Below are positions 1 to 31,741 of a stretch of DNA of 34,369 nt, piece after piece. Under the pieces are notes generated by a model. That model was not told where the DNA came from and ran no database searches. It saw only the letters and a list, made by a program, of their open reading frames with translations. Position numbers and translations under genes: made by a program. Every line of letters starts with the position of its first letter. Position 1 is the first letter of the stretch. The DNA is from an uncultured bacterium (lineage in GTDB: Bacteria; Chloroflexota; Anaerolineae; J036; Brachytrichaceae), in the NCBI GenBank assembly GCA_903921365.1, contig CAIXPS010000380.1:1-34369 (forward strand), in the 5' to 3' direction.

Positions 1-1
1 A

Positions 2-703
2 GATCTGTTCAAAGCCAACCCCGCTGTGTCCGAAAAAGTCTCGGCTGTGGTTATGAAGGCGCTGAACAAGGATCCACGCGCTCGCTACGCCAGCGCCGGC
101 GCTTTTTCGCAGGCATTTGCGGCGACACTGGACAAGAAGCGAGCAACGGCGCTGCCCAGGTGGCTGGTTTTAGCCGGGGGATTAGCCACATTGCTCGTAG
201 TGGCAGTGCTGGCTATCGCCGTAATCAGCGCATCGCCTACACAGGGAAGCGACGCCACGCCGGTCGGCAACAGCGCACAACGTGCAGGCGTCGCCACTGC
301 GACGAGAAGAACATCTACTACCGGAACGCGCGTGGTATCAAAGGATGACACGATACTGGTGGACAGCACCGAGACTGTTGAAACACCGACGCCTGATACG
401 GCGCCAGGCCAGCCAACAGTGACACCTGACTTGCGTGTTATAGCTTCGGAGACGCCGCGCCCGTCCACGCCTGTTCCAACGCGCACAGCTGTGCCTGACG
501 CGCCAACCAATGTCGCACCTACATCACCGCCGGAACCGACCTCCGCGCCACCACCTGGCCCGACATCCGCGCCGCCGCCTGGCCCGACATCCCCACCACC
601 GCCAACAACACCGCCAATCATTGTGGTGCGACCGCCGATTTTGATCACCGCGATCATCATCAGGCCGCCAATCATCCGAATAACCCCTATCCGGTTACCT
701 TGA
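2..703 (+). CDS. C-terminal part of a receptor Ser/Thr protein kinase (5' end outside window)
   Basis: The reading frame is open from base 2, so only the end of the gene is present. The first ~35 residues match the last helix of a PknB-type kinase C-lobe (VVMKALNKDPRARYASA, as in other bacterial kinases of this family). A single membrane helix follows (around WLVLAGGLATLLVVAVLAIA), then an outside segment of ~150 residues rich in Thr, Pro and Ala with PTSAPPPGP-type repeats. A kinase inside and a Pro-rich stalk outside is the family norm. The stalk shares TATRR and PGQxTVTPDL motifs with the PP2C phosphatase encoded 85 bases downstream, which suggests a common origin of the two tails. The last ~30 residues are an odd Ile/Pro/Arg-rich tail with three RPPI-like repeats. 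The catalytic core is not visible, so activity cannot be judged. Confidence 0.85.
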   Translation, partial: DLFKANPAVSEKVSAVVMKALNKDPRARYASAGAFSQAFAATLDKKRATALPRWLVLAGGLATLLVVAVLAIAVISASPTQGSDATPVGNSAQRAGVATATRRTSTTGTRVVSKDDTILVDSTETVETPTPDTAPGQPTVTPDLRVIASETPRPSTPVPTRTAVPDAPTNVAPTSPPEPTSAPPPGPTSAPPPGPTSPPPPTTPPIIVVRPPILITAIIIRPPIIRITPIRLP

Positions 704-4942: not shown

Positions 4943-4975
4943 CCTTGAGTTCATCAGGAGCAGGAAGGTGAGGAC

Positions 4976-7279
4976 ATGAGCACAGCCAATTCCCTTGCGC
5001 CGGGCAGTATCGTTGGCAGCTACCAGATCATTGACATGATCGCGCAGGGCGGCATGGGTATCGTCTATCGCGCGCAGCATCGCATACTGAAGCGCGAAGC
5101 CGCGCTGAAAATATTGTTCCCTCACCTGGCCGCTGACTCTGAATTCACACAGCGCTTCCTGCGTGAAGGCATGGCAATGGGACAGCTCAGGCATCCAAAC
5201 ATAGTCGAGGTGTACGATGCCAACGTCGCCGATGGTTACTATTACCTGGCCATTGAATACCTGCCCGGCGGCACGCTCAGCCAGCAAATGAATCGGTTTC
5301 ACTCGACCAGGCAGTTTATGCCCGTCAATGATGCGCTGAAAGCCATCCAGCAGGTGGCGCTTGCCCTCAACTATGCGCACAGCAAGGGTTTCGTGCATCG
5401 CGACATCAAGCCCAGTAATATCATGATCGCGGCCGATGGAAGATATGTTGTCACTGATTTCGGCATAGTCCACGCAGAAGGAGCGACCAAACTCACTCGC
5501 AGTGTTGAGGCGATGGGCACCCCGGAGTATATGTCGCCAGAACAAGCACAGGGCATGAAAGTGGATGGCCGCAGCGACATCTATTCACTAGGGATCGTGC
5601 TATATGAAATGCTCACCGGTAAACCCCCATTCGTTGCAGACACCCCCTGGGGCACGGTCTACAAGCATATCAAAGAACCCCCCACCCCCATTACGCGTGT
5701 TCGCACTGACCTGCCAGGCGCAGTTGTCGAAATCGCGAACAAAACGATTGCTAAAAAACCAGAGGATCGTTTTCAGACCGCCGGTGAATTAGCCGCTGCT
5801 ATTGATGGCATTACTAAACCCAAAATGCGGGGCGGAAATGCTTCTGAATCTTTCAGGACAGGTGTGACCACTGGCACAGGCGGCAGCAACCGTCTCTTTA
5901 TCATCGGCGGGATTGCGGTTTTATTAGTTGTTGTCGTAGCGGCTATCGTATTCGTTGCTTCAACACTTCTCTCGCCCACAACACCACCGGCTGCGCAATC
6001 CACATTGGTTGCAGCTGCTGTAACCGCTACCAGGCGTGCTGTTGCGACCACGGCTCCAGCACAAACTGAGCAGGCGACTGTCGTCGATGTAACGACTCAA
6101 CCCACCGGGACAGACCAGAACAACAAAGCCACGGCAACCATCGATAGCTCAAGCAACACTGACAGTGCCACGGCAACCTCGGAGGGAGCAACGGCAAGCG
6201 CGCCCCCTACGGCAACACCACCGGCGCCAGCAAGCGTCAAAGCGAGCGCGACAACAGCGCCGCCAGAAACACCGATCCCACAGAAAACACTCGCACCCAC
6301 AAACACCTCATCTCCCGGCGCGGCGCCAAAACCCGGTCAATTATTTGACTTTGAACAGGCATTTAGTTGGAGAATCGGGGACCAACCTTATGGGTCGCTG
6401 GAGCAATCCAACGCTCAGTCGCATGACGGCGCTTATTCGGCAAAGCTGACATATGACATCCCAGGGGTGAGCAATGCCTTTGTCGTCTTCTTAAATGATG
6501 TCCAGTTGCCAGGCCAACCGACCGGTCTTCTGGCATGGGTCTATGGCGATGGCAGCGGACATTTTCTAAATACGTGGATCGGCGATGCCAACGGTCAGGT
6601 CAGGCAATACACCTTTGGGCGCGTTTTTCACGCTGGCTGGCAGCAGATGATCGCATGGTTCGACGATACCCGCCCCTGGCCCAACACTTATATCAGTGGG
6701 CCCGACAACGGCAAGCTGAGTTATCCGATCACATTCAAAGCATTGGTGCTGGATGCGGCCCCACACGGGACTGCCACAAAAGGAGCCATCTATATCGATG
6801 AGGTGACTCTGACAACACAAAGTGTGCCAGCGAGTGGGGCAACACCTATACCAGCGGCAGCCGCCACCGCGTCCGGCGCGCCCATTACTGGAACAGCGTC
6901 TGCGCAGGACTTCTCTTTTGGGAACTATACCATTGGTCGGCAGCAATGGGGTAAGCCAACCTCGGCTGACGGTTGCGGCAGTTTTAGCAACGATAACGTC
7001 GGCCTCTGGCTTAAATACGAGATCAACTTCGATATCGTGAACAGCGGACAATCCGACATCAGCAACTGGTCGCCGGTCTTCCTCAGCAACATCCGAAATG
7101 TGCTGCCAACTTGCGTTAATAAAGCTGGCAGCACAACGATTTCAGTGGGAGCATCCACCCACGTTGCTTACACGCTCTATATGACAGGCCAGTACCTTGA
7201 GACGATTGAGGTAAAAACAGATGCCTTGACGAAAAAGCTGTGTGTGGATGCCTATGGCAAGACAATTACACCCTGTTGA
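4976..7279 (+). CDS. Receptor Ser/Thr protein kinase with jelly-roll and four-cysteine ectodomains
   Basis: Transmembrane Ser/Thr kinase. The kinase domain spans ~14-275 with a canonical Gly loop (QGGMGIVY), K45, HRDIKPSN (D143), DFG (D161) and SPEQ. A TM helix lies at ~308-331, followed by a Thr/Pro/Ala linker that contains TATRR. Residues ~455-615 look like a galactose-binding or CBM-type jelly roll (DFEQAFSWRIG, AYSAKLTYD, YIDEVTLTT), which could bind wall sugars. The last ~125 residues repeat the four-cysteine domain of the previous kinase: C667, C713, C756 and C767, the last being the final residue, with WGKPTS and KLCVDAYGKTITPC. The start at 4976 follows a GGAAGGTGAGG stretch. It is 33 bases from the upstream gene and probably in the same operon. 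Ligand and substrates are unknown. Confidence 0.95.
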   Translation: MSTANSLAPGSIVGSYQIIDMIAQGGMGIVYRAQHRILKREAALKILFPHLAADSEFTQRFLREGMAMGQLRHPNIVEVYDANVADGYYYLAIEYLPGGTLSQQMNRFHSTRQFMPVNDALKAIQQVALALNYAHSKGFVHRDIKPSNIMIAADGRYVVTDFGIVHAEGATKLTRSVEAMGTPEYMSPEQAQGMKVDGRSDIYSLGIVLYEMLTGKPPFVADTPWGTVYKHIKEPPTPITRVRTDLPGAVVEIANKTIAKKPEDRFQTAGELAAAIDGITKPKMRGGNASESFRTGVTTGTGGSNRLFIIGGIAVLLVVVVAAIVFVASTLLSPTTPPAAQSTLVAAAVTATRRAVATTAPAQTEQATVVDVTTQPTGTDQNNKATATIDSSSNTDSATATSEGATASAPPTATPPAPASVKASATTAPPETPIPQKTLAPTNTSSPGAAPKPGQLFDFEQAFSWRIGDQPYGSLEQSNAQSHDGAYSAKLTYDIPGVSNAFVVFLNDVQLPGQPTGLLAWVYGDGSGHFLNTWIGDANGQVRQYTFGRVFHAGWQQMIAWFDDTRPWPNTYISGPDNGKLSYPITFKALVLDAAPHGTATKGAIYIDEVTLTTQSVPASGATPIPAAAATASGAPITGTASAQDFSFGNYTIGRQQWGKPTSADGCGSFSNDNVGLWLKYEINFDIVNSGQSDISNWSPVFLSNIRNVLPTCVNKAGSTTISVGASTHVAYTLYMTGQYLETIEVKTDALTKKLCVDAYGKTITPC

Positions 7280-7385
7280 CCCGGTGGAAATGACTTCCAT
7301 GCAGTAGTATTGCTTTGAATCCTTTAGGACTGTAATACATAACGCTCCCCATTGCCGCCCAGACCTGCCATCAATATGCAGATCC

Positions 7386-7408
7386 GAATGATTGCTTTTG
7401 AATCATTC
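7386..7408 (+). promoter_or_regulatory. Leader dyad upstream of the third complete kinase
   Basis: A perfect 8-bp inverted repeat (GAATGATT and AATCATTC, 7-base loop) lies in the 153-base gap before the kinase at 7433, just ahead of its AGGAGA ribosome site. This is the longest gap in the + strand signalling block, so separate control of the last genes is possible. It has no T tract, so it does not look like an intrinsic terminator. A dyad of this size can arise by chance in a window this long. Confidence 0.35.
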
Positions 7409-7432
7409 AGGACGATTAAGAGGAGATGAAAT

Positions 7433-9529
7433 GTGTCAATGACACGAATCGGGCAGTACGAGATACTCGGTAAGATCGCATCAGGTGGGATGGGAATCGT
7501 TTATCGCGCCATCCATACTCCATTGCATCGCGAAGTTGCGCTCAAAGTGTTGCTTCCCGACCTGGCCGATGATGTCAATGCACTTGCCCGTTTCCAACGT
7601 GAGGCACAGTCCGCAAGCAAACTCAGGCACCCAAACATCATCGAAGTCTATGACCTGGGCCAGGCGGATGGTCAGAACTACATGGCGATGGAGTACCTGC
7701 CCGAAGGCAGTTTACAGCAAAAACTGCGCGAGATGGTTCTCGAAGACACGGCGGCGCTGACTGAGGAGCAAGTTCTGAGGATGACTCGCCCACTTGCCGA
7801 TGCGCTGGGGTATGCGCACGAGCAAGGACTTGTCCATCGTGATATTAAACCAAGCAATATCCTGCTGCGCGGCGACGGGACACCGGTTCTGGCGGATTTT
7901 GGGATTGTGCTGGCTACTACGGCAACCCGCCTGACCCGCAACCTCAGCGCCATTGGCACTCCCGACTATATGTCTCCCGAGCAGGGTAAGGGTGGCGCTG
8001 TCGATGGCCGCAGCGATCTGTACTCGCTCGGAATCGTCATGTACGAGATGCTGGAAGGTGAACCTCCGTTCAAGGCAGACACGCCCGTGGCTGTTGTCTA
8101 CAAGCATATTAAAGACCCCTTGCCCGAGATCAGGCGCAAGGATGTTTCGCTGCGAACACGCCGAATCATCGAAAAAGTCACCGCCAAGGAACCAAACGAC
8201 CGCTACCAGACGGGCGCCGAACTGATCAAAGCAATCGACTTGGCGCTGGATGATCTTCAACGCGGCGCCGTGACCAGGAAAGGGGTCAGTGTCGCCATGC
8301 CTGCGGCAATTGAGCCGGTCACTGCGCTAACGCCTGCGGGCACTGACCCTATACAACCGTCGAATCGATTAAGGCGGCGCAATCTGATCTTGGGGCTTGT
8401 CGCCGCCGTCGCGTTGGCGCTGCTGATCGGAGGCTCGGTAGTCATAATAAACGCAATCAGTAGTAACACAACCCAGCAGGGAACACTTGGGACAGCAACT
8501 GCGCCGTCGACCGGCGCACGGCAACAACTGACTGCAACGGCTGCCGAACTGACAGTGTCGCCGACCGATGCCGCTACGCTTGCGGTCATAGCGACAAGCG
8601 CTACAACCGTTGAGCCGACTGCTGCAACCTCACCCACCCCATCTGATACAGCGATACCGCCGACCAGTCTTCCGACGAACACCCCCTTACCCAGCGGTAG
8701 CTGTCTGCCTGGGTACGTTTACAGGTTGGCGCGCCCTGCGGATAAAATATGTGTCCCGCCAGCATCGCGCAACCAGGCGCAAGCGGATAACTCAGCAGCC
8801 GCTTCGCGCAGGGCTGTCGCCACAAACGGGCCGGATACTTGCAAAGCTGGATACGTGTTTCGCCTGGCATTCAATAACGACCACGTGTGCGTCACACAGG
8901 CGGTGCGCAACCAGGTCCAGGCCGATAACGCGGCTGCGGCCTCAAGGAAATTGTTGCAGTACGGGCCCGATACGTGTATCCTGGGCTACGTCTGGCGCGA
9001 GGCATACCCAAATGACCATGTTTGCGTCACTGGAGCCACCCGCGCCCAGGCACAAGCAGACAATGCCGCAGCCGCATCGCGTATTGATCCGGGTGGCGCA
9101 TATGGGCCGAACTCATGTGTAGCGGGCTACGTCTGGCGCGAGGCGCGAACGGAGGACTACGTGTGCGTCACAGCAGTCATTCGCTCACAAACGGCTGGGG
9201 ACAACGCAGCGGCTGCGTCTCGCCAGGTTGTTGCGAGTGATGGGCCCGATACATGCAAGGATGGCTTTGTCTGGCGCCTTGCATCAAGCAGTGATCACGT
9301 TTGTGTGACATCAGACATCCAGGCGCAAGCTCAGGCAGATAATAGTGCTGCCGCATCCCGTAAACTGCTGCAACAGGGGCCAGACACATGCATCAATGCC
9401 GGTGGCGGCGCTAGCGGTAGCTATGTATGGCGCCTGGCATTTCCAGGAGACCATGTTTGCGTCAGTGCCGATGTCGCAGCGGCAGTTAAAAAGGATAACA
9501 ACCTTGCACCCAGTCGGACAGCGCCATAG
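7433..9529 (+). CDS. Receptor Ser/Thr protein kinase with six-repeat cysteine-paired ectodomain
   Basis: Transmembrane PknB-like kinase. The kinase domain spans ~9-270: SGGMGIVY loop, K38, HRDIKPSN (D137), DFG (D155), SPEQ. A TM helix lies at ~316-340 and a Thr/Pro/Ala linker at ~345-420. The ectodomain, ~423-698, is six consecutive modules of about 45 residues. Each has the pattern GPDTC-x2-GYVWRxA-x4-DHVCVT-x10-DNAAAASR, with two cysteines that could pair as one disulfide per module. This module type is known from extracellular bacterial proteins but its ligand is not established. A GTG at 7433 sits 6 bases after AGGAGA and was preferred to the ATG at 7439. Kinase activity is expected. Confidence 0.93.
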   Translation: MSMTRIGQYEILGKIASGGMGIVYRAIHTPLHREVALKVLLPDLADDVNALARFQREAQSASKLRHPNIIEVYDLGQADGQNYMAMEYLPEGSLQQKLREMVLEDTAALTEEQVLRMTRPLADALGYAHEQGLVHRDIKPSNILLRGDGTPVLADFGIVLATTATRLTRNLSAIGTPDYMSPEQGKGGAVDGRSDLYSLGIVMYEMLEGEPPFKADTPVAVVYKHIKDPLPEIRRKDVSLRTRRIIEKVTAKEPNDRYQTGAELIKAIDLALDDLQRGAVTRKGVSVAMPAAIEPVTALTPAGTDPIQPSNRLRRRNLILGLVAAVALALLIGGSVVIINAISSNTTQQGTLGTATAPSTGARQQLTATAAELTVSPTDAATLAVIATSATTVEPTAATSPTPSDTAIPPTSLPTNTPLPSGSCLPGYVYRLARPADKICVPPASRNQAQADNSAAASRRAVATNGPDTCKAGYVFRLAFNNDHVCVTQAVRNQVQADNAAAASRKLLQYGPDTCILGYVWREAYPNDHVCVTGATRAQAQADNAAAASRIDPGGAYGPNSCVAGYVWREARTEDYVCVTAVIRSQTAGDNAAAASRQVVASDGPDTCKDGFVWRLASSSDHVCVTSDIQAQAQADNSAAASRKLLQQGPDTCINAGGGASGSYVWRLAFPGDHVCVSADVAAAVKKDNNLAPSRTAP
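8699..9526 (+). repeat. Six tandem modules in the kinase ectodomain
   Basis: Six imperfect direct repeats of about 130-150 bases encode the CxxGYVWR...VCVT...DNAAAASR module. The first copy is the most diverged at its start (CLPGYVYRLARPADKICV) and the last carries a short Gly/Ser insertion (GGGASGS) and a degenerate end. This indicates expansion by unequal duplication. Confidence 0.9.
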
Positions 9530-11490: not shown

Positions 11491-13404
11491 TCACATCCGG
11501 ATCTGGGTCCGGTCATTGTTGACCCAGCGCTCACCCTGCCCGGATGCGAAGCGCAACTTCACGCCTAGATTGGCAATATCCCCTAATGTGATTTCGTCGC
11601 CATCCCGCAAAGGCACTTGAACCCCGACCTTCAATTTTGCGCCATTTACGCGCGTGCCATTGGTGGACCCATTGTCTTTGATCGTAAATTCGCCGGGCGC
11701 GGACATCTCCAGCACGGCATGGACGCCGCTGACCGTGCTTGGCTGTCCAGCATAAAAAGTCACATCACACTTCGGATCGCGTCCAATAACAATGCTAGGC
11801 TTAGTCAAGCGCACCTGCTCATTCGTCCTATTGGGCGGTCCCTGCAAGACGATCAAGGTTGCGAGCGCGGGCGCCGCAGGCGGCCCCTTACTCGATCCCT
11901 TCCCTCCACCTGGGGCTGATCTGCGTCGACGCGACAGAAGCAGAATCACAATCAGCAAGATGACTAAAACGACCACAACGGCGATGAGAATTGGGACGAT
12001 GGGCGTATCAGTGGGAATTACCGGCGTTGGTGTCGCAGTGGGAACTACTGGCGGCGCCACTTCAACCGTCACCCGCTCTTGCGCAGATGCCTCACTGCCT
12101 AACGCATCGACGACGCGAACCGTTAGCGTTGCAATATTCGCGCCCGGCTTGGTAATATCCGAGAGATCCGCCACCACCTCAAGGCTGGTTGTGCCGGGCG
12201 ACAAGTCTGCTGCTGTTTTAGTGTCTTTCACAACGCCATTCACAGAGAACTCGACTTTCTGTAACGCGCGCGTGATGTTATCCGTCCAGGCGACGTTTAC
12301 CTGCGCCCTGATGCTCAATGGGCTATATAGACTCTGAGTCGGAGAAGTTGCTGAGGCGCCCGGAAGCGGCGCGCGACGCAGGAATGTAGATTGTGGCGTC
12401 AGCGTCACCAGCGGTGGCGAGACAGTGACGTTGTACTCACCCGCGCGGCCTGTGTCTGGTTTCTCCGGGGACCCCACAGTGACTGTGCGCGCCCCGGAAG
12501 CGCCGGACGGGCTGACATAGGAGATTGTGTAATACTGGCGTTGAAATGCAAGTTGCTGGTAGATATCATCCATTGCGGCGCCGGCGGCATTGGGGACAAG
12601 CTTTACAAACTTGCCACTTGTGCCGACTGCTGCCAACTGCAAAGGCGGCTGGTCCGGGAGTGCGTTATCCGTTTGAACTGCATGGACGATGATGTATTTG
12701 GCTTTTGCATCAGATGCCGTGTTTTGAGCGCCGACGCTGGCAACGTTGGCTTGTGGATCCTCTATCGAACGCGCTATGAAAATGATCGCAGCGTCCTGGA
12801 TGCCTGGCTCCTTGACGATTTGATTCATCTCGCTGACTGCATCATCAATGCCCTTAAGACCTTTTGTGAGCCCTGCACTGCGCGGAAAAGTGTAGTTCGT
12901 GACAAAGTCAACAAACTCGCGCCCACGCGTTGTCGGCCCGACTTTGGACGTAGTGCGATCTCCCTGCCCGGGATTCTCGCGCACCAGTAGCTTAACGGTA
13001 TCACGGCCATCCACGAATGTCCCGCCATCCACCAGCCGCGTCATCGACTGTTTAAGCGCACCCAGTATGTTCTGGTAGTTTGACTGAGAACCCAGATCGA
13101 CGACGTAGACAATCGCAAGTGGGCCATCCGTATGCGGCGTCACGCGCACATCCTTTGCCGGGACTGGTTTCCCATTTTCAAAAACAGGCAGGTTGGCCGC
13201 GGTCAGATCCGGTATGGTATGGTTATTCGCGTCAATGGCGCGCAAGGTGAAACTGATTGCGGGGAACTTACTCGAATCCAAATTCGTGATGAAGTAAGTA
13301 TTGCTTCCCTGCGCCAGTAACGCAGGGGCACTCCCAAATAAACTGGCGAGCATCACCAGAACAAGAGCGACAACTGCTATCCAGTGGATGAGTTTAGTTT
13401 TCAT
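11491..13404 (-). CDS. Signal peptide-vWA-TM-FHA membrane protein (first of three paralogues)
   Basis: Extracellular vWA-like domain joined to a cytoplasmic FHA phosphopeptide-binding domain. A start at 13404 gives a clean signal peptide (MKTKLIHWIAVVALVLVM...LLAQ), whereas the longer frame from 13443 adds 13 polar residues and overlaps the upstream gene. The vWA-like region spans ~80-280; its metal site is degenerate (VVDLGSQ instead of DxSxS). An Ig-like segment lies at ~340-450. A TM helix at ~465-490 is followed by SRRRRS, which places the C-terminus inside. The FHA domain, ~530-620, keeps GRDPKCDV, VSGVHA and STNGTRVNG, so phosphothreonine binding is likely. It is the last gene of the ATPase operon. 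Binding partners are unknown; the nearby kinases are obvious candidates. Confidence 0.88.
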   Translation of the reverse strand: MKTKLIHWIAVVALVLVMLASLFGSAPALLAQGSNTYFITNLDSSKFPAISFTLRAIDANNHTIPDLTAANLPVFENGKPVPAKDVRVTPHTDGPLAIVYVVDLGSQSNYQNILGALKQSMTRLVDGGTFVDGRDTVKLLVRENPGQGDRTTSKVGPTTRGREFVDFVTNYTFPRSAGLTKGLKGIDDAVSEMNQIVKEPGIQDAAIIFIARSIEDPQANVASVGAQNTASDAKAKYIIVHAVQTDNALPDQPPLQLAAVGTSGKFVKLVPNAAGAAMDDIYQQLAFQRQYYTISYVSPSGASGARTVTVGSPEKPDTGRAGEYNVTVSPPLVTLTPQSTFLRRAPLPGASATSPTQSLYSPLSIRAQVNVAWTDNITRALQKVEFSVNGVVKDTKTAADLSPGTTSLEVVADLSDITKPGANIATLTVRVVDALGSEASAQERVTVEVAPPVVPTATPTPVIPTDTPIVPILIAVVVVLVILLIVILLLSRRRRSAPGGGKGSSKGPPAAPALATLIVLQGPPNRTNEQVRLTKPSIVIGRDPKCDVTFYAGQPSTVSGVHAVLEMSAPGEFTIKDNGSTNGTRVNGAKLKVGVQVPLRDGDEITLGDIANLGVKLRFASGQGERWVNNDRTQIRM

Positions 13405-13420
13405 GATGGCTTTGCATCCT

Positions 13421-15550
13421 TTAGGATTGGATGTGAAACTCAAGCTTCACTTTTGGCCCAAGACCAATAACCGATCGATCATCCAGACGTTCACGCCCGT
13501 TGTTTGGCAACCTCTTGCCGTTGACAAAGGTGCCATTAGTGCTATTGGCGTCCACAACATACCAGACGCCGCCCTCGTTCACAATTGACGCGTGTGATCC
13601 TGAAACGCCGCTCTGGCTATCCATCTTGATCACACCATCATTGCCATCGCGACGTCCAAGTGTGACACGCGCAGTTGAGATTTTCATCTGGAACTGGAGT
13701 GTTGCCGGCTCACGCGCGGCCAATGTAGCAGAGAAGCGAGTGGACGAGCCAGATTGGACAACCGGAGACTGGTTCATTGACTGTGAGACGCTTTCGGCCA
13801 ACGGGATAATGACCTGGGATCGATCCGACGCAGCCGCCTGGTGATGTCTGCGGTCCAGTTCAGGCTCAACAACCCGCACGTCGACACGTGAGCGCGCCCT
13901 TGCCACACGGATCAGAATGATGAAGCCGATCAGTGCCAGGAACGCCACAACAACCAGCACCACCACGGCAACTGACGACCGCCCGAGATCGTGCGCCAGT
14001 TTGTCAAAAAAGCCCGGACGTTCATATGTGACTGTGAAAGGCTTGGCCGCCTCAGCAATGATCTGGTTCGCGCCATCAAGTGCTTGAGCCTTGACCAGAT
14101 AAGCGCCAGAAGGCACGTCAGCGCCCGGGATAACGATCGGTAGATCTGGCGACTGGAAGGCTTCAGTTCCCGGGATTGGGCCACTGGCATTCTGACCACC
14201 AGACTGCTCAGGCTCAAGCCATGCCTTGTAGCGGGCAATCCCGGCAATGCCACCCGGGGTGGTTACAGTAACAACGAAGTTTGGCGCATCGAGCGATGGC
14301 GCGCTTACGGACGCAATCGCTATTTGCAATGGCGTCGGTTTGAACTGAAAATCGCGCGGGGTCGTGCGTGAAACAACGTTATTATTGGCGTCGACAGCAG
14401 CAATATCCAGCGTATAGCTGCCATCCTTGGCAAGGTTTGTCGCAGGAATGGCAAGTGATTCCTGCACATTCGGGAAGTCCAGGTTCAGGCTTGTCAGCCC
14501 AGTGGCCTTGTCGACCACCCGCGCCTGAAGTTTGGCGATCCTTGCGCGGTTCACAAGCGTCAGGTTCACAAGGATATTTCCCGGTGTCGTTCGCACTTCA
14601 CCGATCAGTTCGATCTTCGCCGGGGGTTCATATACTCTGTCAGACACAAAGGTGATCTGGCCCGGTAGCGCTGTCGTGTCTTTCAGCACCACCATGATAT
14701 CGACGGTTTGCTCGCCCTTTGGCGGGTACAACGTCCAATTGGCCTCCACCTGATTGGCCAGGCCGGAGAGCATGTTGCTCAGGCCAAAGATGAGATCATT
14801 CGGGCTGCGCACATAGGCAAGCCCCTTGCTCGGTTTGGTGTATTTTTCCAAGGTAGCCAGATTAACCGCGTAGCCATCAACTCCTAACGCGTGAATCTGA
14901 GTAGCGTGATTGACCGCCTCGTCAACAACTGCCTGAATCGAGGTGTTCGCGCAACCATCCTGACTCGCCGTAACCACAATGACCGCCTTACGCGTCGAGG
15001 CAGATTCCACGCGACGCACGGCTTCCAGCATACCGTCGTTCAGACATGGCTTAGCGCCGGTCTTGGCGTTCACCGCCGTCAACAGCTTCTTGCGCACTTC
15101 TTCTTTGTCCGACGTAAAGTCCTGGATCATTGTAGGAACTGTGTCGAATGTGACGATTGTGAAAAGTGCGTTATCGGGCATGCGGTCCAGCGACTTCGAC
15201 AACCCCTCAATCATGCGCCGGAAATCAGGAGAAGCAGCAAGTGTGCCGCTTGTGTCGACCAAAATCGATATAGCCATCTGTCCGGTCGGCTTGCCGAACG
15301 TTGCGGTATAGCGATCCTGCCCGATTTTGAGTTCGACATGATCAATATCGGCCGCGGCGGGCATACCGGCGCTATCGAGCACAGAAAACAACGTGCGAAC
15401 TTTCAATGCAGCCACACCATCTGCGCCTGCCTGTGCCGGTGTCGCCGTGGTATTGTGCACGTAAACTGCCGACGACCCGCCCTGGGCCATTAGCGATCCC
15501 GGATTGATCAACACGGCGATACAAAACGCCGTAACAAGTACCCGCTTCAT
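13421..15550 (-). CDS. Signal peptide-vWA-TM-FHA membrane protein (second of three paralogues)
   Basis: Same architecture as its neighbours. The signal peptide MKRVLVTAFCIAVLINPGSLMAQ is followed by a vWA domain at ~85-270 with the best-preserved metal-binding motif of the three (ILVDTSGT). Two or three beta-sandwich segments lie at ~280-500. A TM helix at ~525-550 precedes RVARARSR, so the C-terminal FHA domain is cytoplasmic. The FHA domain keeps LGRRDGNDG, VSGSHA and STNGTFVNG. GGAGG sits 4-5 bases before the ATG at 15550. The gene lies 15 bases after the third paralogue, in a tight operon. vWA domains bind protein ligands via a metal ion, so this copy is the most likely of the three to bind an extracellular partner. 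Its role in secretion is inferred from context only. Confidence 0.9.
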   Translation of the reverse strand: MKRVLVTAFCIAVLINPGSLMAQGGSSAVYVHNTTATPAQAGADGVAALKVRTLFSVLDSAGMPAAADIDHVELKIGQDRYTATFGKPTGQMAISILVDTSGTLAASPDFRRMIEGLSKSLDRMPDNALFTIVTFDTVPTMIQDFTSDKEEVRKKLLTAVNAKTGAKPCLNDGMLEAVRRVESASTRKAVIVVTASQDGCANTSIQAVVDEAVNHATQIHALGVDGYAVNLATLEKYTKPSKGLAYVRSPNDLIFGLSNMLSGLANQVEANWTLYPPKGEQTVDIMVVLKDTTALPGQITFVSDRVYEPPAKIELIGEVRTTPGNILVNLTLVNRARIAKLQARVVDKATGLTSLNLDFPNVQESLAIPATNLAKDGSYTLDIAAVDANNNVVSRTTPRDFQFKPTPLQIAIASVSAPSLDAPNFVVTVTTPGGIAGIARYKAWLEPEQSGGQNASGPIPGTEAFQSPDLPIVIPGADVPSGAYLVKAQALDGANQIIAEAAKPFTVTYERPGFFDKLAHDLGRSSVAVVVLVVVAFLALIGFIILIRVARARSRVDVRVVEPELDRRHHQAAASDRSQVIIPLAESVSQSMNQSPVVQSGSSTRFSATLAAREPATLQFQMKISTARVTLGRRDGNDGVIKMDSQSGVSGSHASIVNEGGVWYVVDANSTNGTFVNGKRLPNNGRERLDDRSVIGLGPKVKLEFHIQS

Positions 15551-15565
15551 GCAACCTCCATGTGT

Positions 15566-17524
15566 TTAGGCCTGCTTTATCTCCGCGCTTAGATCGGCAA
15601 AGTCGATCTTGTCGCCTACTTTGATCACACGCCGTTGTGCGGAGACGAGCCGTTCTCCATTTAACTTAGTGCCAGAGGAAGAGTTTAAATCCGTCACATA
15701 AATCACGCCGTCCTCCACACTGATGCGAGCATGCTTGCGCGAAACGAATTGGCTCACGATACGCACGGCTCCAGGACCTGGCTCAGGTTCACGGCCAATC
15801 GAGAGCGTGTCCATCCCGGTTGACCCGATTTCAAATCGTTTGCCGGCGTATTCGCCCTTGGTGAATTCAAGCACAGCCAGCGGCGCGTTTTGCGTAAACA
15901 TGATCGTGGCGCCGGCCAATGGTTCAGGCGCGCTCTGCGGTGGTGGTGAAACCTCGAACATCTGCGTGGGAAACGATGCCTGGCCCAAGGACGTTTTCGG
16001 GGAGTCAGCATAATTGTCGGCCGGGATCGCGCTTGATGCCGACCCCACTACCATGGTCTTCGGGGAATCGGAGACATAGCTATGCTGGCGTTGAGCCTTC
16101 CGGCGTGACAACAACACGATCAACATTATCAGCAAAATCAGCAACCCGACAAAGACAACGACAATCAGTATGCCAGGAAATGTTGTCAGTTGTTGCAGCA
16201 AAGTGGGTCCGGGCGTCGGCGTTATCGGAAGTGCCAAAGATGCGGGATCAATAGCAACCTGCACATCATAGGTCGTGACAGAGGCAGGATTGCCCTCTTC
16301 ACCTGCAGCCTTCAGCGTGATCTTTGTAACGCCGGTCAAATCGTTCGTCGCAATGACGAACTGGAATGGCGGTGTCGTCTCCCTGGTCGAGTTACCAGAG
16401 ACGATGTACTCAACGGCCTTAACGGGCTTTGCCGAGTCAACCTTGGGCTCGATAACGACCGACTTATTCGCCGGCAGCAACTTGGGATTTACGACAGCGC
16501 CGTCAATCGTAAAGGTCACCTTTGAGAAAGTCGGCTTAATCGGCGTCGCTGACATAAACGTTGCCTCATCAGAGGCAGTGCTTCCGCCTTGCGACACGCG
16601 GATATCGACGGTCTTTGCCTGTCCGTCACCAGGGACGCCCATGTTAAACGACACTTGATACTGCGTGCGCAGGTTCGATTCCATGCGTTTGAATATCTCA
16701 AGGACGTTTTGCAATTGCGCTGCCGATTCATACTGGCCGCCAGTTTGTGTCGCCAGCTTGCGGAGATAGTCTTCCTTCAGATCAGGACCCACACCGATTG
16801 TGAATACAGGCGTCCGATCCTTTGTTGCCCGCGCATAAGTATCTTCCTCAGTACAGCTCACGCTGCTGACGTCTCTGCCGTCAGTGAGCACGATAACGGC
16901 GCGTCGTCCAACGTTCTCCTGCGCAGCCACCATCAGCGCCTTGCATACCGCATCATACAGCGGTGTGTGACCGACAGCACTCAGCTTATTGATCAGGCTG
17001 ACCATATCGCCGCGCTTCTCACTGGCTGGCGCAAAGCCATATTCTGTTTGCGGGCTTAGCTGGGTATTAACAGCCACCGGGCCTGTGAGCGCAAGCACCC
17101 CCAGCCGGTCACTGTTGCTGGCAGCCTGCAGGATGGAGACCGAAGAGTCCTTCAGCGGCTGTAATGCTTCGCCTTGCCTGAGCATTCCAAAATCGACCAT
17201 GAGGAGAACACTCGCTTTCAGACTTGGGCTGATCACGCGGTTCACCTGGATATCTGAGAAAGTTTTGCTGCCCGCGACCACCTGGAACGACGTGGCATCC
17301 AGGTTCTGCAAAGGCACGCCGGCAGTGTTGACCGGCGTCACGGTGCAAACAATATCTGGATAATTCGAACTATCACAGCCATTCACGACAATCGTGATTC
17401 CGCCGCTCTGAGCCACCAGCATCCTTTGCGGGGTAACCAGAATGGTTACAAAGACGATCACAATGAGGGTGCGTATCTGATTGCGCAGACGGCGATACGC
17501 ACACGCGGGACTTGCGTTGATCAT
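15566..17524 (-). CDS. Signal peptide-vWA-TM-FHA membrane protein (third of three paralogues)
   Basis: N-terminal signal segment (RTLIVIVFVTILVTPQRMLVAQ), then a vWA domain at ~95-300. The first metal motif is lost (MVDFGML) but GHTPLYDAV and VIVLTDGRD are typical of vWA. An Ig-like segment lies at ~330-430. A TM helix at ~455-480 is followed by SRRKAQR, and a cytoplasmic FHA domain occupies ~560-650 (SIGREPEP, VSRKHARI, SSSGTKLNG). The start codon overlaps the stop of the upstream ubiquitin-like/FHA gene by one base (TAATG), which indicates translational coupling and suggests the two products act together. AGGTG lies 8 bases before the start. The degenerate metal site suggests a structural rather than metal-dependent vWA role. 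Confidence 0.9.
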   Translation of the reverse strand: MINASPACAYRRLRNQIRTLIVIVFVTILVTPQRMLVAQSGGITIVVNGCDSSNYPDIVCTVTPVNTAGVPLQNLDATSFQVVAGSKTFSDIQVNRVISPSLKASVLLMVDFGMLRQGEALQPLKDSSVSILQAASNSDRLGVLALTGPVAVNTQLSPQTEYGFAPASEKRGDMVSLINKLSAVGHTPLYDAVCKALMVAAQENVGRRAVIVLTDGRDVSSVSCTEEDTYARATKDRTPVFTIGVGPDLKEDYLRKLATQTGGQYESAAQLQNVLEIFKRMESNLRTQYQVSFNMGVPGDGQAKTVDIRVSQGGSTASDEATFMSATPIKPTFSKVTFTIDGAVVNPKLLPANKSVVIEPKVDSAKPVKAVEYIVSGNSTRETTPPFQFVIATNDLTGVTKITLKAAGEEGNPASVTTYDVQVAIDPASLALPITPTPGPTLLQQLTTFPGILIVVVFVGLLILLIMLIVLLSRRKAQRQHSYVSDSPKTMVVGSASSAIPADNYADSPKTSLGQASFPTQMFEVSPPPQSAPEPLAGATIMFTQNAPLAVLEFTKGEYAGKRFEIGSTGMDTLSIGREPEPGPGAVRIVSQFVSRKHARISVEDGVIYVTDLNSSSGTKLNGERLVSAQRRVIKVGDKIDFADLSAEIKQA

Positions 17525-18153
17525 TATCCAATCACCTGGAAACTCAGGGCAATGTTACCAACCTTGATCAAGGCGCCTGGAAGCAATGGATATCGTTCGC
17601 TGACGCGCATTTTAACGCCATCAAGGAGTGTGGGGTTGCGATCCTGAATCGATTCGATATAAAACGATCCTCCTTTTTCAGTGATCGCGGCATGGTGACG
17701 CGACACGCTGGGCAACGTCTCCAATTCCTCCAGGTCAACTGCCAGCAAGCGGTTATTCCTAGGATCCCGCACATCGCGACGACCCATGATGGCCGGATAC
17801 CAGCGCAAGTCATACTCCGACAGTGTCCGTTGCTCACTCAGATAAACGCGCGAAAAACGCTTGCTGAATGGCTGGCGCACACCGCGCGTAATCGCATCCA
17901 GGATGCCTGTCGACTCAACGATCTTTACCACCTGTAGCGCCGCTCCCTCAGAGACGCTCAGTTGGTCGAGGGCTGAATCAACCGGGAGGGGGGTGCGCGA
18001 TCCCCGCATCAGCAAGTTGTAACTGCCGTCGAGGTTAAACTTGTCTTTGATTGTCGCGACAAGCGTCGCGACTTGCAAAGTGCCACGCACATTCACCCGC
18101 CGCGAACCGATGCTATTCGCCTGTATATCCAGGGTCAGATTGAGTCTGTCCAT
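17524..18153 (-). CDS. Soluble ubiquitin-like (EsaB/YukD-type) plus FHA fusion protein
   Basis: Residues ~3-77 resemble a ubiquitin-like fold: LNLTLDIQ strand, hairpin, VATLVATIKDKF helix, and a final GAALQVVKI strand. This is the type found alone as EsaB/YukD and at the N-terminus of EccD in type VII systems. Residues ~115-209 form an FHA domain with IMGRRD, VSRHHAAI and NPTLLDG, so the phosphothreonine pocket looks intact. There is no signal peptide or TM helix, so it should be cytoplasmic. The ATG abuts the ATPase stop (TAAATG) with GGAGG 8 bases upstream, inside the ATPase reading frame, indicating coupling to the motor. The FHA call is firm; the ubiquitin-like call rests on pattern only. 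In EssC the FHA domains are on the motor itself, whereas here they may be supplied in trans. Confidence 0.8.
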   Translation of the reverse strand: MDRLNLTLDIQANSIGSRRVNVRGTLQVATLVATIKDKFNLDGSYNLLMRGSRTPLPVDSALDQLSVSEGAALQVVKIVESTGILDAITRGVRQPFSKRFSRVYLSEQRTLSEYDLRWYPAIMGRRDVRDPRNNRLLAVDLEELETLPSVSRHHAAITEKGGSFYIESIQDRNPTLLDGVKMRVSERYPLLPGALIKVGNIALSFQVIG

Positions 18154-21100
18154 TTATTTAGCCTCCAGATTCCCAGAGTTTTGCAAATTCTGGGAATCCG
18201 CCTTGACACTGTTCGCAGGGGCAGTCTCCGCGCCTTGCGGTTGCCCATTGACACCCGTGACACCTGCGGCTGGTGTATCAGGCACTTCATAGGTAACCGA
18301 TGCCATCCGCGACATATCTATAGTGGGGATGGCGTCGAAGCTCGGAAGCCCCTTGAGCAGATCTGCCATCAACTGGTCTGGATCAGGCAATTGATCAGAA
18401 GGTGTAGGCTGGGCTAACGCATCACCAGGGGCGCCCGCTGCTGCCGTTGTGCCGCCGGCAGCTTGTGTTGTGTCATCACCCTTGATAGCCTGATCCAGGA
18501 CAGTTGTATCCTTCGCCCAGTAACTCCACTGCGCGCGCTGCGGATAAGCGTCACGAATGGTTTGAATCATCTGGGTTACCTGCATCTCACTATCAGGGCG
18601 CCCCTCGGCGCAGGGCACAGCCATCTGGGTCATGGCTGCCGAAACTGCCCTGACCATGAAGCCGCGCCCCGGGGGCAGTTCCTTTGTAACCGAGAATTGG
18701 CCGCGAACACCCATGTATCGGACAGCCTCCCAGTCATTGAACACGTAGGCATAGCGCGATCCTTCAACCCGCTTGCGCAGGTCATCCATACCGCTGCGCA
18801 TCGCATTAATCGTGCCGCTCATGACAATGTGCAGGTTCTTGCCCTTGCCTATCTCGCCAAGTTGTGACATCGGCTGGGTTTTGCGGTTAATCGGCTCAAT
18901 GTCATCATAGTGATCGATCAAGACAATGATATGACGCTTGTTGTTGTCCTGCGGGTTATACCACTCCGATTTTCCACTTAAGCGAGCGATCACTTCTTCG
19001 TCGTACTCCGCGCGCAACCGCCGAACGACTTCATCCATCTCCTTCGAGGTCGAAACAGTTGCTAGAACGTGTGGCAGCTTATCCAGGCGGTTCTCGTTAC
19101 CCTGCGCATCCGTCGTTCCCATGCCGTAGTTGTAGAAGCGGCGCGATGGATCAGAGGGATCGACCAGGATCAGCCCGACTGTGTCCGGCGGGTAGCTGTA
19201 TGCAAGCGACAAAACAAGCGCGCGCATGCTGGTTGTCTTGCCAGTGACAGGCGGCCCCATCATCATCCAGTGCGGACCCTTCGCGCCCAATTCGAGCATC
19301 ATTGGCTCGCGATCGAGATCGTTGATGCCAAGCGGCACACTGATCTTCGGGTCGCCCTGCCCCAAAGCGGGCAACAACGTCGCAATTTCGATCACCTTTG
19401 GCAGCGGTTCCACAGGCCGGGGGCGCCTGGACTTGAGTGATGGATCCTTTGACTCCAGTTTCGCCCAGGCCTGAGCCATCGTCTGTGTCAAAATGCGGAA
19501 GTAGTCAGTTTGATCGGACGGATCGCCACTCATTGGGATGGCAGTATGAAACTCCAGGGGCATTGGCTTTTCGTCTACTAACCCGACACAGATGCCGCGG
19601 CCAGGCGTGTCGTTGATGCGCGGGGCGCCACGCCCGACAATCGACATGTAATCCATGCGTTCCGATTGTGTAAAGGTGACGCGTTGGTTCAGCAAGCTCA
19701 TCATCTTGCCAGTGATGTCGCCGAGTAATGAAGCAGTCAGAACAAAGTACACGCCGAACGAGCGGCCATCGCGCAGAAGTGACAACAGATCCGGCAGATA
19801 CTTGTCGTAGGTTTCCTTAAACTCCACTGCGTTGTCGACGACAACCACGATTGCCGGTAGCGGCGCCGACGCGTTGCGGGCCTTGTAGTCTTCCATCGAA
19901 TCGTACGATGCCAACTTCTGCTGCCGATCGTCGATGATATTACGGATCATGCGCATAAAGCGTTCGACGCGCTCTTCTTCGTTCGTCTCGACAATGCCTC
20001 CGATATGCGGTAGAGGTCGCAACGCCTTCAAACCACCCCGTCCGAAATCGAGCACATAGATATGCAACTCATCAGGACGGTGACTCGCTGCGAGTGACAA
20101 GAGCAACGACTTGACAAAGGTCGTCTTGCCGCGACCGCTTGCGCCGAACACGATGAGCGGGTCGCCAGTCAGGTCGACGTTCATCAGGCGTTGCTCAGCC
20201 AGCAAAGTGTTGTCCACGATGCCGACATTTGCGTTCACTGGCAGCGGTTTCGACCAGTCATGCGACTGCCAGATTGGCTCAGCCGCCTGATTATTGTCCA
20301 TCCACACAGCGATATCGGGGTTGATGACAATTTGCTTGCCATACTTACCTTTGGCAATATACTCGGCGTTGACTGAGAGGTTCAGCGGGAGTCTATCCGC
20401 CAACGGACTCGGCCAGGGCTTGAACTGCTTGGGAATGGACTGCCGTTTGGCCTCAGCCGCCAGCGCGCCAACCAACCAGCCCAGGAGGGAGCGCGGCGCA
20501 TCAGTTGTTTCGAGCGCGGACAGAATCTCATCGACGTTGTAACGCGGATCTGGTTTTGTTTCATCGTAACCCGCGCCGATATAGGCAACCTGAATTTCAC
20601 TCAGGTTGCCACCGCCTACCTGCACATAACCGCGACCAGGAATCGCGGGGAGTGTGGCTGCATCGGGTCGTCCGATCATTTCCTTACTGTCGTCGGCAGT
20701 TTCCACTCTCAGGCTGATCTTGTACTTCATGTTCGCCCGCATCTGGTCAGTCACGGCGCCACTGGGTCGCTGGGTTGCCAGAAGCAGCGATACGCCGAAC
20801 GAGCGACCGAGACGAGTGATGCTCTCGAACTTAGCCTTGTACTCAGGGTTCTGCGTCACCATTTCTGCGAACTCGTCCACAATAATAAACAGGTGTGGGA
20901 ACGTGTTCGGGAACGGTGAATCCGGTTTGAGCGTAGGGATGACCTTCTTGCGATAATCGACCAGATCCGCAACGCCCGCCCTGGCTAGAATTTCGGAGCG
21001 CCGGTTCATCTCAGCGTTGATGGCCGTGAAGATGCGCTCAACGGCATTGCCTTCGAGGTTCGTTGCAAGATCGACGCAGTGCGGCAAACGCCGGAAGGGC

Positions 21101-24100
21101 TCCACAGTCGGGCCGCCTTTGTAGTCAATCAGCACAAAGTTAACGATGCGCGGATCATACTTAATCGCCATACTGGCGATCAGCGTCTGCAGCATCTCAG
21201 ATTTACCGGAACCCGTTGTGCCCGCAGCCATGCCATGCACGCCGTCACCGCCGGCTTTGGCATTGAAGATCATGGTGCGGACTTCCTTGCTGCTGATCAG
21301 ACCGAGCGGCGCGCTCAACCATTCCTGGTTGGCCTGCTGCATACTGCGCGCCCACATCTCCTGAATGCCCAGGTCGCCAATGCGATCCATGCGCTTACCC
21401 TTGACGAGCTGCATCATTTCGAGGAAGGTGATTGCCTTGGGTATATCCGCACTGGGGCGTTTTCCGCCCACAGACGCCCAGGCGTCCTCCATGCGCTCCG
21501 CTACCTTTGTGAACGCATCCTTCTCGGCGCCCATTACCGGTATGCCGATGTGGAATTCCAGCGGCTGACCCTCGATGTTGATCAGACCGCGACCGGGAAT
21601 ATTGGATAAAGGCAGCGCGCCCTTCCCCACAATATCGCTGTATTGCGATGTGTCAGCCATTGTGAAGGCTAACCGCACCGCGAGCAGGTTGAAGAGTTTG
21701 TTAGGCACATCATTGATCTGGTTGGCCGTGATGATAAACGAGATGCCAAACTGCCGACCGTCGCGCACGAGCGCAACTAATTCAACTAACAAAGGTTCAT
21801 AGTTCTCGCGGAACTCGGCGAAGTTATCGATCACAACCATCACAGAAGGAAACATCATCTCGGGGCTGTCTTTATGCTGCTGGTTAAAATCTTCCAACGA
21901 AGCATATTTCGACAGACGCTCCTGACGCTCATTCATCAGGCTGCGCACCATGCGGAACAGCGCGGCCACTCGGTCGGGCTGGCTGGCATCGATGGAGGCG
22001 CCGCAGTGAGGCAACCGCGTCACTGCGCGCAACCCGCCACGACCGAAGTCGAGCAGGTACATATTGAGTTCAGCCGGGGAACGTTGCGCAGCCAATGCAA
22101 ATAACATGGATTTGACAAAGGTGCTCTTGCCGCGTCCGCTGGCGCCGAACACAACGATTGGGTCGCCGCCGCCATCCAGCGTCAAGCGGCGCTGGTTCGA
22201 ATGGAATGGATCGTCAACCAACCCGATTGTTGCCTTCAGCGGCAACGGCGAATTCCAGTCATGCGGCGTCCACAGATCGTACTTCTGGAAATCGCCAGGG
22301 GTCGCCAGTTCAGGACTCGCCCACTTGGCGATGGCAGGATTAAGAACGACTGTGTCGTCCTTCAGTTCGGGCAGATAACTGGCATCAAGCGCCTCGTTGA
22401 TTGGCAGCTTTTCCGGCAGTGGATCTGGCCATGGCTTGAATTGCTTGGGGATGCCCTGCTTATGCGCTTCAGCCGCCAGTGTGCCCACAAGCCAACCCAG
22501 CAGCGATCGCGGCGGATCGTTTTGCTTTTCCAACGCAGCGAGCACTTCTTCAGCAGGATACTCAGGATCGTTGCGGGCCAGGTCGTATGGGGCGCCACTC
22601 CATGCCACTTGCACTTCGGTCAGCGTATCGCTCCCAGCCTGGACATAGCCGCGTCCAGCGATCTGCGGCAGGCGCGCGGCATCGGGTTTCTTAAGTAGTT
22701 CCTTGCTATCCTCGGCCGTCTCCATGCGCAGGGCAAGGCGATACTTCATGTTAGAGCGCATCTGATCGCTGACGACGCCGGTGGGGCGTTGCGTCGCTAG
22801 AAGCAATGAGACACCAAACGAACGACCCAGGCGTGTGATGCTTTCAAACTTGAGTTTGTATTCAGGGTTCTGCGCCACCATCTCGGCAAACTCGTCGACG
22901 ATGATAAACAGATGTGGGAATGTAGTTGGGAGCGGTGAATCCGGCTTAAGCCCTGGGATAACCTTCTTGCGATACTCAACCAGGTCCGAAACACCAGCCT
23001 TTGCAAGAATCTCGGAGCGGCGGTTCATTTCGGCATTGATGGCGATGAAGATACGATCGACCGCATTGCCTTGCAGGTTTGTCGCCATGTCAACACAATG
23101 CGGCAACTTGCGGAATGGCTCGATGGTGGGCCCGCCTTTGTAGTCGATCAGGACGAAATTGACGATGCGCGGATCATAGCGGATAGCCATCGCGCTGATC
23201 AACGTCTGCAACATTTCAGATTTACCAGAACCCGTAGTGCCGGCAGCCATGCCATGCACGCCATCGGCCTGGGCCTGGAACACCAGCATGCGCAGGTCTT
23301 TGCTACTGATCAAACCGAGCCAGGCGCGCAACCATTCCTGATTGGCTGGCTGCATGCTCTTGTTCCACTTGCCTTTGATGTCAAGGTCGCTGATGCGCAC
23401 CATGGGCTTCTTCTCTGCAAGTTCGAACATCCCCAATAGCGTCAATGAGCGCGGCAACTCGGCGCTGGGTCGCTTACCGCCCAGAGCTGTCCAGACGCGA
23501 TCCATACGCTGGGCGATCACCTGAAAATTGTCGATCTGATCGCTGGAGGTGGATTCCTCATGGCGGCCGGGCATTCCAATCTGGAACTCCAGCGGCAATG
23601 GCTTTTCGCCTTCCTTAATGGAGACAGCAATCAGTCCGCGCCCTGGAACGTTGTCAAAGTTGCGCGAACCCGACCCGACGATCTCAGTATAGATGGAGCG
23701 ATCGCTCTGGGTCATTGTCAGACGAACCGTAAACAGGCTCAACAACTTACTCGGCACGTCGTTCAGGACAGTTGCAGTGATGACGAAGTACACGCCAAAA
23801 GCGTGACCATCTCTGACCAGGCTGATCATCTCGGGGATGAGATGCTCGTAGCTTTCCTTGAATTCGGCGAAGTTGTCAACCACAACCACAATCTCCGGCA
23901 ACACATTTTCCGGGTTCTTCGCATTGTAGTCGGCGAGTGAATTGAACTGCGCCAGGCGCTCCTGGCGCTCAACCACGAAGCTGCGCAACATGCGCATCAA
24001 TTGTTCAACGCGAGCTGTTTCACCTGCGTCAATGGAGGCGCCAAGGTGCGGCAGTCCGGTAATCGCCTTCAACCCGCCACGGCCAAAGTCAAACGCATAC

Positions 24101-26934: not shown

Positions 26935-26982
26935 TAAATCACACCCTGTAATATGAAAACGCACAATATCCGTTCATTTCTC

Positions 26983-27062: not shown

Positions 27063-27240
27063 AAGCAGGAACGTTTTCTTTTTCATATGACCCGTTGTAT
27101 TGAAGTTTAACAGACGATAGCCTTTGTTCGATACTGCAAAACACCCTACTTGAGCAGATGATTTCGGTTGGGACATATGGAAATCACTCTGGACAAAGGA
27201 ATTGTCACATCTTATGATAGTGGTGTCAAGGATTTGTAAA

Positions 27241-30584: not shown

Positions 30585-30672
30585 TGACATACCTCCGGTT
30601 GCGCGACTGCGCCGGGCGGGGACAGAAAGTACTTAAGCCGCACCAGGCACGCTATGCAAACCACCAAACAAC

Positions 30673-31032: not shown

Positions 31033-31075
31033 GCTTATTACTCCTTAAATAATCCTTGTAAAAGGATGCTGATGG

Positions 31076-31393: not shown

Positions 31394-31418
31394 TTCTTAA
31401 ATCCTCCTCAAGCTAGCG

Positions 31419-31709: not shown

Positions 31710-31741
31710 GACTTTAAACCTCCGTAACACTCAATCTTGAA

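What the first reader, a model, noticed from the sequence alone, without database searches (positions are those of the whole stretch)
11491..17524. Three vWA-TM-FHA proteins that could carry signals across the membrane
All three have a signal peptide, an outside vWA-like domain and Ig-like segments, one TM helix with a positive inner flank, and a cytoplasmic FHA domain with intact phosphothreonine motifs. Only the middle one has a near-complete vWA metal motif (DTSGT); the others are degenerate (DLGSQ, DFGML). They may be subunits of one heteromeric membrane complex replacing EccB/D/E or EsaA.
Basis: partly seen in the sequence, partly recalled or inferred. Interest (0 to 1): 0.78.

Follow-up and report, generated by a model that had tools for sequence, protein, structure and literature searches.

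The report
Phospho-reading membrane subunits of secretion locus
Three related membrane proteins, with a protein-binding domain outside the cell and a phosphate-reading domain inside, recur with an undescribed Chloroflexota version of the type VII protein-export machine and probably help assemble it or switch it on.

Summary
The three proteins are real: vWA-TM-FHA paralogs VF1, VF2 and VF3, in an operon with a Ub-like/FHA protein and an EccC/EssC-type motor. Two details are wrong. The middle vWA is not near-complete: VF2 keeps DxS but lost the MIDAS Thr and Asp, while VF3 keeps Thr and Asp but lost DxSxS. There is also a fourth paralog, VF4, with a complete MIDAS in its lineage, on another contig of the genome.

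The architecture as such is not T7-specific: several Anaerolineae without WXG100 or T7 motor carry it in kinase/PP2C/FHA loci. The VF1, VF2 and VF3/VF4 lineages, however, track the T7 system. In the window's family the VF3/VF4 clade is in 12 of 14 WXG100 genomes and 0 of 14 others. VF2-type proteins sit beside motor, Ub-FHA, pseudokinase and small WXG100s in several further families.

Best reading: membrane subunits of an unlisted Chloroflexota T7SS variant, whose FHA domains read threonine phosphorylation set by the locus kinases and PP2C. VF3/VF4 linkers are packed with TxΦΦ motifs (37 found, 4.5 expected) resembling the self-binding GarA/OdhI site. Heteromeric complex and phospho-switch are inferred, not shown. 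New variant of a known kind.

The parts
11491..13404 (-). VF1: signal peptide, degenerate vWA (model 105-303), beta-rich stretch, TM ~484-504, FHA 551-621, C-terminal DRTQI tail (residue numbers from the TTG start of the listed ORF)
   Evidence: start moved from TTG 13443 to ATG 13404
13421..15550 (-). VF2: signal peptide, vWA 86-269 with DxSxT but without MIDAS Thr/Asp and with invariant Cys169/Cys200, beta-rich stretches 275-510, TM ~526-551, disordered linker 550-605, FHA 629-698
15566..17524 (-). VF3: signal peptide, vWA with TPLYD and TDGRD but DFGML in place of DxSxS, TM, TxPhiPhi-rich linker, FHA 575-642 (NGT Asn replaced by Ser)
17524..18153 (-). Ub-FHA: ~85-aa N-terminal domain (YukD/EsaB-like only by a marginal match in the G012 ortholog) fused to an FHA domain with invariant GR, SRxH
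   Evidence: one base overlap with VF3
18154..26964 (-). EccC/EssC-type motor, 2936 aa, N-terminal TM helices, seven ATPase modules, no N-terminal FHA
   Evidence: TIGR03928 1564 bits, cut-off 778
27202..28383 (+). pseudokinase with C-terminal TM (HRD replaced, DLG)
   Evidence: conserved beside the motor in other families
28497..29306 (-). 269-aa protein of unknown family; EspG-like role is only a guess from its position
   Evidence: no database match
29349..30590 (-). long protein with N-terminal WXG100 domain, candidate substrate
   Evidence: 36.3 bits, cut-off 27.3
30718..32116 (-). four small genes (104, 105, 103 and 124 aa): two clear WXG100, one weak WXG100, one weak EspC-like
788..2176 (+). 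PP2C-type phosphatase with TM (named from sequence and alignment to relatives; not scanned against Pfam itself)
3404..9529 (+). three TM Ser/Thr kinases PK1 (3404-4942), PK2 (4976-7279), PK3 (7433-9529), all with HRDxKPSN and DFG
1..703 (+). C-terminal end of a further kinase; by synteny with G003 and G004 the locus continues into contig C424 (FHA-FHA-kinase and VF4)

Best explanation
VF1, VF2 and VF3, with VF4 on a neighbouring contig, are single-pass membrane subunits of a type VII secretion variant found in Chloroflexota (Anaerolineae). Their vWA ectodomains face outward and make protein contacts. Their FHA domains face the cytosol and bind phosphothreonines written by the locus TM kinases and the FHA-FHA-kinase and erased by the PP2C phosphatases. 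Because this motor has no FHA of its own and EssB/EsaA relatives are not found, the FHA links that EssC makes in T7SSb are supplied here in trans by Ub-FHA and the VF proteins. Phosphorylation of the TxPhiPhi motifs in VF3/VF4 linkers would let a neighbouring or the same FHA dock, closing or opening the assembly around the motor and pseudokinase. Shown: domains, topology by sequence, pThr-core conservation, association with the T7 genes, motif enrichment. Inferred: physical complex, phosphorylation, direction of the switch.
For: Motor is T7-type (TIGR03928 1564 bits) with WXG100 genes. Tree: VF1, VF2 and VF3/VF4 are separate supported lineages, and every member of these in the window's family f1 is in a WXG100 genome. 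Association within the family: VF3/VF4 clade in 12/14 WXG100 genomes against 0/14 without, Fisher p 6e-6, and 9e-5 without the window's genus (not corrected for phylogeny). In other families VF2-type genes lie with WXG100, Ub-FHA, motor and pseudokinase (L237, L238, L239), or with part of that set (L240, L243, L246, L248, L250, L163), and L131 is a compact one-strand locus with WXG100 x2, FHA-kinase, vWA-TM-FHA, PP2C x2, kinases and motor. FHA core residues conserved; kinases have intact catalytic motifs. Linker Thr in TxPhiPhi: 37 of 85 against 4.5 expected in VF3/VF4 T7 members; Ser, Ala and Pro controls not enriched. The top FHA structure matched by the VF1 model is DgcB FHA with its own phosphopeptide (6hc1), and GarA/OdhI self-bind a flanking pThr (PMC5448819, PMC6733907).
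Against: The architecture exists without T7 genes (G092, G006, G022, G023, G027), so phospho-signalling may be its primary role. Some T7 motor loci (G025, G091, G045, G080, G036, G071) show no adjacent vWA-TM-FHA, so it is not universal for the motor. In G012 the VF genes are scattered over two contigs away from the motor. VF2 linkers in the window's family lack the motif (1 against 1.4 expected). The motif nearest the FHA could be structural. No phosphoproteome or interaction data exist.
Confidence: 0.6

Rival explanations
1. They are general receptors of a Ser/Thr kinase/PP2C/FHA signalling module; the T7 genes are a regulated neighbour and the VF proteins are not part of the export machine.
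For: Same architecture in PP2C - vWA-TM-FHA - FHA - kinase loci without WXG100 or T7 motor; VF4 adjoins the FHA-kinase and PP2C.
Against: The compact loci L237 and L238 hold a VF2-type gene with motor, Ub-FHA, pseudokinase and WXG100 genes and no locus kinase or PP2C detected in the stretch; presence follows WXG100 within the family.
Confidence: 0.22
2. They form the envelope-spanning conduit itself, as EccB/EccD/EccE or EsaA do.
For: Large ectodomains, several paralogs, EssB and EsaA families not found in seven genomes.
Against: One TM helix each; EccB search had no positive control; EccD and EccE not searched; no structural match to those proteins seen, though the lists cover only the vWA domain.
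Confidence: 0.2
3. They are surface adhesins or substrate receptors whose vWA binds an external ligand, with FHA as a cytosolic anchor.
For: vWA folds match integrin-type and pilus-adhesin domains; MIDAS complete in the VF4 lineage and in VF2-type proteins of other families.
Against: All three window paralogs have lost a complete MIDAS.
Confidence: 0.1

Closest known systems
T7SSc of Bacillota (Garrett, Higginson and Palmer 2024, PMC11217815)
   Same: WXG100, EccC/EssC ATPase without N-terminal FHA, ubiquitin-like protein, TM Ser/Thr kinase, PPM phosphatase, a vWA protein
   Different: TscE is described as a cytoplasmic vWA protein without TM; no vWA-TM-FHA, no Ub fused to FHA, no motor with seven ATPase modules; the paper's text does not mention Chloroflexi
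T7SSb (EssB pseudokinase, EssC with N-terminal FHA, EsaA)
   Same: motor scores above the EssC cut-off; a TM pseudokinase is encoded beside it; FHA plus pseudokinase partnership
   Different: motor has no FHA and seven modules; FHA is on separate proteins with intact pThr residues; YukC and EsaA families not found
GarA/OdhI and Bdellovibrio DgcB self-binding FHA proteins (PMC5448819, PMC6733907)
   Same: FHA next to a disordered stretch with Thr motifs; 6hc1 is the top FHA structure matched by VF1
   Different: here membrane-anchored with vWA ectodomain and several motifs; self-binding untested
ArnA-ArnB, FHA-vWA pair of Sulfolobus (PMC6509490)
   Same: phosphorylation-linked module of FHA and vWA domains; 8s05 is a high-ranking match of the VF2 vWA
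   Different: two separate proteins controlling archaellum expression; here both domains in one chain on opposite sides of a membrane
T6SS threonine phosphorylation pathway (recalled: PpkA, PppA, Fha; phospho-regulation cited in PMC11217815)
   Same: kinase, PP2C and FHA control of a secretion machine
   Different: no T6SS gene was sought; no family membership claimed

Membership tests
Type VII secretion system (general) | EccC/EssC-family membrane ATPase | tested here: met
   window motor TIGR03928 1564 bits, TIGR03924 1042, TIGR03925 812, all over cut-off
Type VII secretion system (general) | WXG100 protein in the locus | tested here: met
   three ORFs over the PF06013 cut-off, further weak ones
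Type VII secretion system (general) | motor-dependent export of WXG100 protein | not testable with these tools
   needs culture or heterologous assay
T7SSb | EssB/YukC homolog | tested here: not met
   PF10140 absent in 7 genomes; control rang in B. subtilis
T7SSb | EsaA homolog | tested here: not met
   TIGR03929 absent in 7 genomes; controls rang in 4 genomes including B. subtilis, over the cut-off in one of them
T7SSb | N-terminal FHA domains on the motor | tested here: not met
   TM helices begin about residue 45, no room for FHA; Pfam lists none among the 25 families shown of 43
T7SSa | EccB | tested here: inconclusive
   PF05108 no match, but no control rang
T7SSa | EccD and EccE | not tested
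   not searched as families; PF08817 gave only sub-threshold matches
T7SSc | cytoplasmic vWA protein without signal peptide or TM (TscE) | tested here: not met
   VF1-VF3 have signal peptide and TM; other vWA proteins of the genome were not surveyed for this
T7SSc | motor without N-terminal FHA, kinase, PPM phosphatase | tested here: met
vWA domain with functional MIDAS | DxSxS, Thr and Asp loops all present | tested here: not met
   each of VF1, VF2, VF3 lacks at least one loop; complete in VF4 lineage and in VF2-type proteins of other families
FHA domain binding phosphothreonine | conserved Arg, Ser, His of the pThr site | tested here: met
   51/52, 53/53, 53/54; Asn of NGT in 36/53, Ser in VF3
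GarA-type self-binding FHA | phosphorylated Thr motif in the flanking disordered stretch bound by own FHA | tested here: inconclusive
   motif enriched in VF3/VF4 linkers; phosphorylation and binding untested

The most novel reading that the evidence does not exclude
An undescribed Chloroflexota T7SS subtype whose membrane complex is a hetero-oligomer of four vWA-TM-FHA paralogs, each keeping a different part of the metal site, with assembly around a seven-module motor gated by threonine phosphorylation of the subunits' own linkers.
Probability: 0.35. Interest if true: 0.78.

Novelty: new variant of a known kind. Interest (0 to 1): 0.6.

Why it matters
Published T7SS subtypes a to j come from Bacillota and Actinomycetota; the review PMC10765036 mentions only that WXG100 sequences occur in Chloroflexota. 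Phosphorylation control of T7SS is proposed in PMC11217815 but not explained. If true, this locus supplies a concrete set of writer, reader and eraser proteins built into the membrane part of a T7SS, and single-copy loci such as L237 and L131 are small enough to reconstitute.

Tried and rejected
EccB family search gave no control signal and is not used as evidence of absence. Ub-like N-terminus: no PDB sequence match and only sub-threshold YukD matches, one of them (E 0.005) at the G012 Ub-FHA gene, so it is called Ub-like with reserve. EspG-like identity of the 269-aa protein: no match, left open. Strict T-x-[VILM]-[FWM] counts in kinases, motor and WXG100 proteins showed no clear excess, so the motif is a property of the VF linkers. 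VF2 linkers of the window's family lack it. No structural match to a secretion conduit appeared, but the lists cover only the vWA part. The idea that the triad as such is T7-specific was rejected for the architecture and kept for the three lineages. Literature searches found no description of vWA-TM-FHA proteins in a Chloroflexota T7SS.
Full report
What is there. The window is contig C380 of a 6.88 Mb draft genome. Close relatives in GTDB are named Thermoflexales, Candidatus Roseilinea and unclassified Chloroflexi MAGs, so the host is placed in Chloroflexota, Anaerolineae. On the minus strand, reading from the motor: motor 26964-18154, Ub-FHA 18153-17524, VF3, VF2, VF1, ending at 11491. On the plus strand to the left are PP2C, a 399-aa protein, three kinases and a fused histidine kinase/response regulator; to the right of the motor are a TM pseudokinase (+) and a 269-aa protein and WXG100 genes (-).

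Checking the anatomy. FHA domains are unambiguous in all three. vWA is found by Pfam in VF2 and VF3. For VF1 it rests on a structure prediction (mean pLDDT 74, residues 105-303, Z 20.7 to BatB) and on a profile alignment to VF3 that runs through the ectodomain. VF2 is modelled at pLDDT 79, with the vWA at Z 24.1. Signal peptides and one TM helix with positive inner flank are judged by sequence and conservation; no dedicated predictor was available. Beta-rich stretches follow the vWA, but their Ig fold was not tested.

Metal site. Across orthologs VF2 keeps DxSx[ST] but has lost the Thr (PCLN, SCLN, ACLN, LCLN) and the Asp (mostly A or N), and carries two invariant cysteines, C169 and C200. VF3 keeps Thr187, D215 and D218 and has lost DxSxS in the window's genus and in g5. 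VF1 keeps Thr193 only. VF4 has DxSxS and TPLYD, and SDGFD is visible in the G004 copy. VF2-type proteins of other families read LDxSGS, TCL, FTDGxD. So the metal site was probably complete ancestrally and eroded differently in each window paralog (inference).

A fourth paralog. In G003 one contig holds FHA-FHA-kinase, VF4, PP2C, kinase, PP2C, 419 aa, three kinases, HK-RR, VF1, VF2, VF3, Ub-FHA, motor, pseudokinase and WXG100 genes. In the window's genome VF4 is cut by the end of contig C424, and the window's left end is the tail of the kinase that lies just beyond it in G003 and G004.

Distribution. Among 99 relatives, VF2 orthologs are in 9 genomes, all with WXG100 over the cut-off (Fisher p 8e-7). 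VF1 orthologs are in 7, all with WXG100. In the window's family the VF3/VF4 clade is in 12 of 14 WXG100 genomes and 0 of 14 others (p 6e-6; p 9e-5 without the window's genus). These tests are not corrected for relatedness. The co-variation is seen inside genera: in g3, G018 has both while G006 and G013 have neither WXG100 nor this clade. Against a strict link, vWA-TM-FHA proteins of other branches occur in genomes with neither WXG100 nor T7 motor, in PP2C/FHA/kinase loci.

Beyond the family. A profile of VF2 found 29 of 396 class genomes. I read the neighbourhoods of 18 outside the family: 10 hold T7 genes within about 10 kb and 8 do not. G391 and G361 have WXG100, Ub-FHA, motor, pseudokinase, four small WXG100-type genes and VF2. 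G234 has motor, pseudokinase, WXG100 genes, VF2 and a VF1-type gene. G154 and G135 have only WXG100 proteins near. Whether the 8 others have T7 genes elsewhere was not tested. L131 (Anaerolineales SKYG50) is a compact one-strand locus with WXG100 x2, FHA-kinase, vWA-TM-FHA, PP2C x2, kinases and motor. The tree places VF1, VF2 and VF3/VF4 as separate lineages, with T7-linked members in each (SH-aLRT only; with bootstrap for the smaller set).

Linker motifs. In VF3/VF4-lineage T7 members, 37 of 85 linker threonines are in T-x-[VILM]-hydrophobic against 4.5 expected by shuffling; VF2-type T7 proteins of other families 10 against 2.4; VF1 4 against 0.7; VF2 of the window's family 1 against 1.4. 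The control counts for Ser, Ala and Pro in the VF3 linkers are 3 of 72, 1 of 87 and 3 of 87. The site resembles the Thr motif of GarA and OdhI, which the protein's own FHA binds after phosphorylation (the residues after ETTS are from memory), and DgcB, whose FHA is the top FHA structure matched by the VF1 model.

How it works. Shown: a T7-type motor without FHA, WXG100 proteins, active-looking kinases, PP2C, a pseudokinase, and membrane proteins with intact pThr cores that follow the T7 genes. Inferred: the VF proteins join the motor complex, and reversible phosphorylation of VF3/VF4 linkers controls docking. Confidence 0.6 for the whole, about 0.7 for membership in the apparatus and about 0.5 for the switch taken alone.

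Placement. It is a T7SS by motor and WXG100. It is not T7SSb (no YukC, EsaA or motor FHA) and not T7SSc as defined (vWA is membrane-anchored and fused to FHA). I call it a new variant of a known kind.

Noticed in passing
18154-26964: The motor has seven ATPase modules: Walker B-type motifs alternate DEFAE / DNx three times, then a seventh, and residues about 456-855 recur twice more at 58-60% identity, as if the D1-D2 pair of EccC were triplicated. Relatives range from about 1250 to 2970 aa.
   Followed up: partly
17524-18153: A Ub-like N-terminus fused to an FHA domain with invariant GR and SRxH in 11 sequences; EsaB/YukD is normally a stand-alone protein.
   Followed up: partly
27202-28383: TM pseudokinase beside the motor is conserved in several other families and lies where EssB would be expected, without matching YukC.
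   Followed up: partly
9587-11473: NarL-type histidine kinase and response regulator fused in one chain, conserved in the same place in G002, G003 and G004.
   Followed up: no
7433-9529: PK3 ectodomain carries about six repeats of a roughly 50-aa unit with two cysteines (GPDTC...DHVCVT...NAAAASR).
   Followed up: no
32450-34336: Two ORFs that look like tyrosine recombinase/phage-integrase proteins next to the WXG100 genes; no family search was run on them.
   Followed up: no
L137-L204: Many vWA-only or vWA-FHA proteins of other phyla turned up in the genome scan, e.g. Desulfobacterales L138 and Spirochaetes L148 with vWA, TM and FHA.
   Followed up: no
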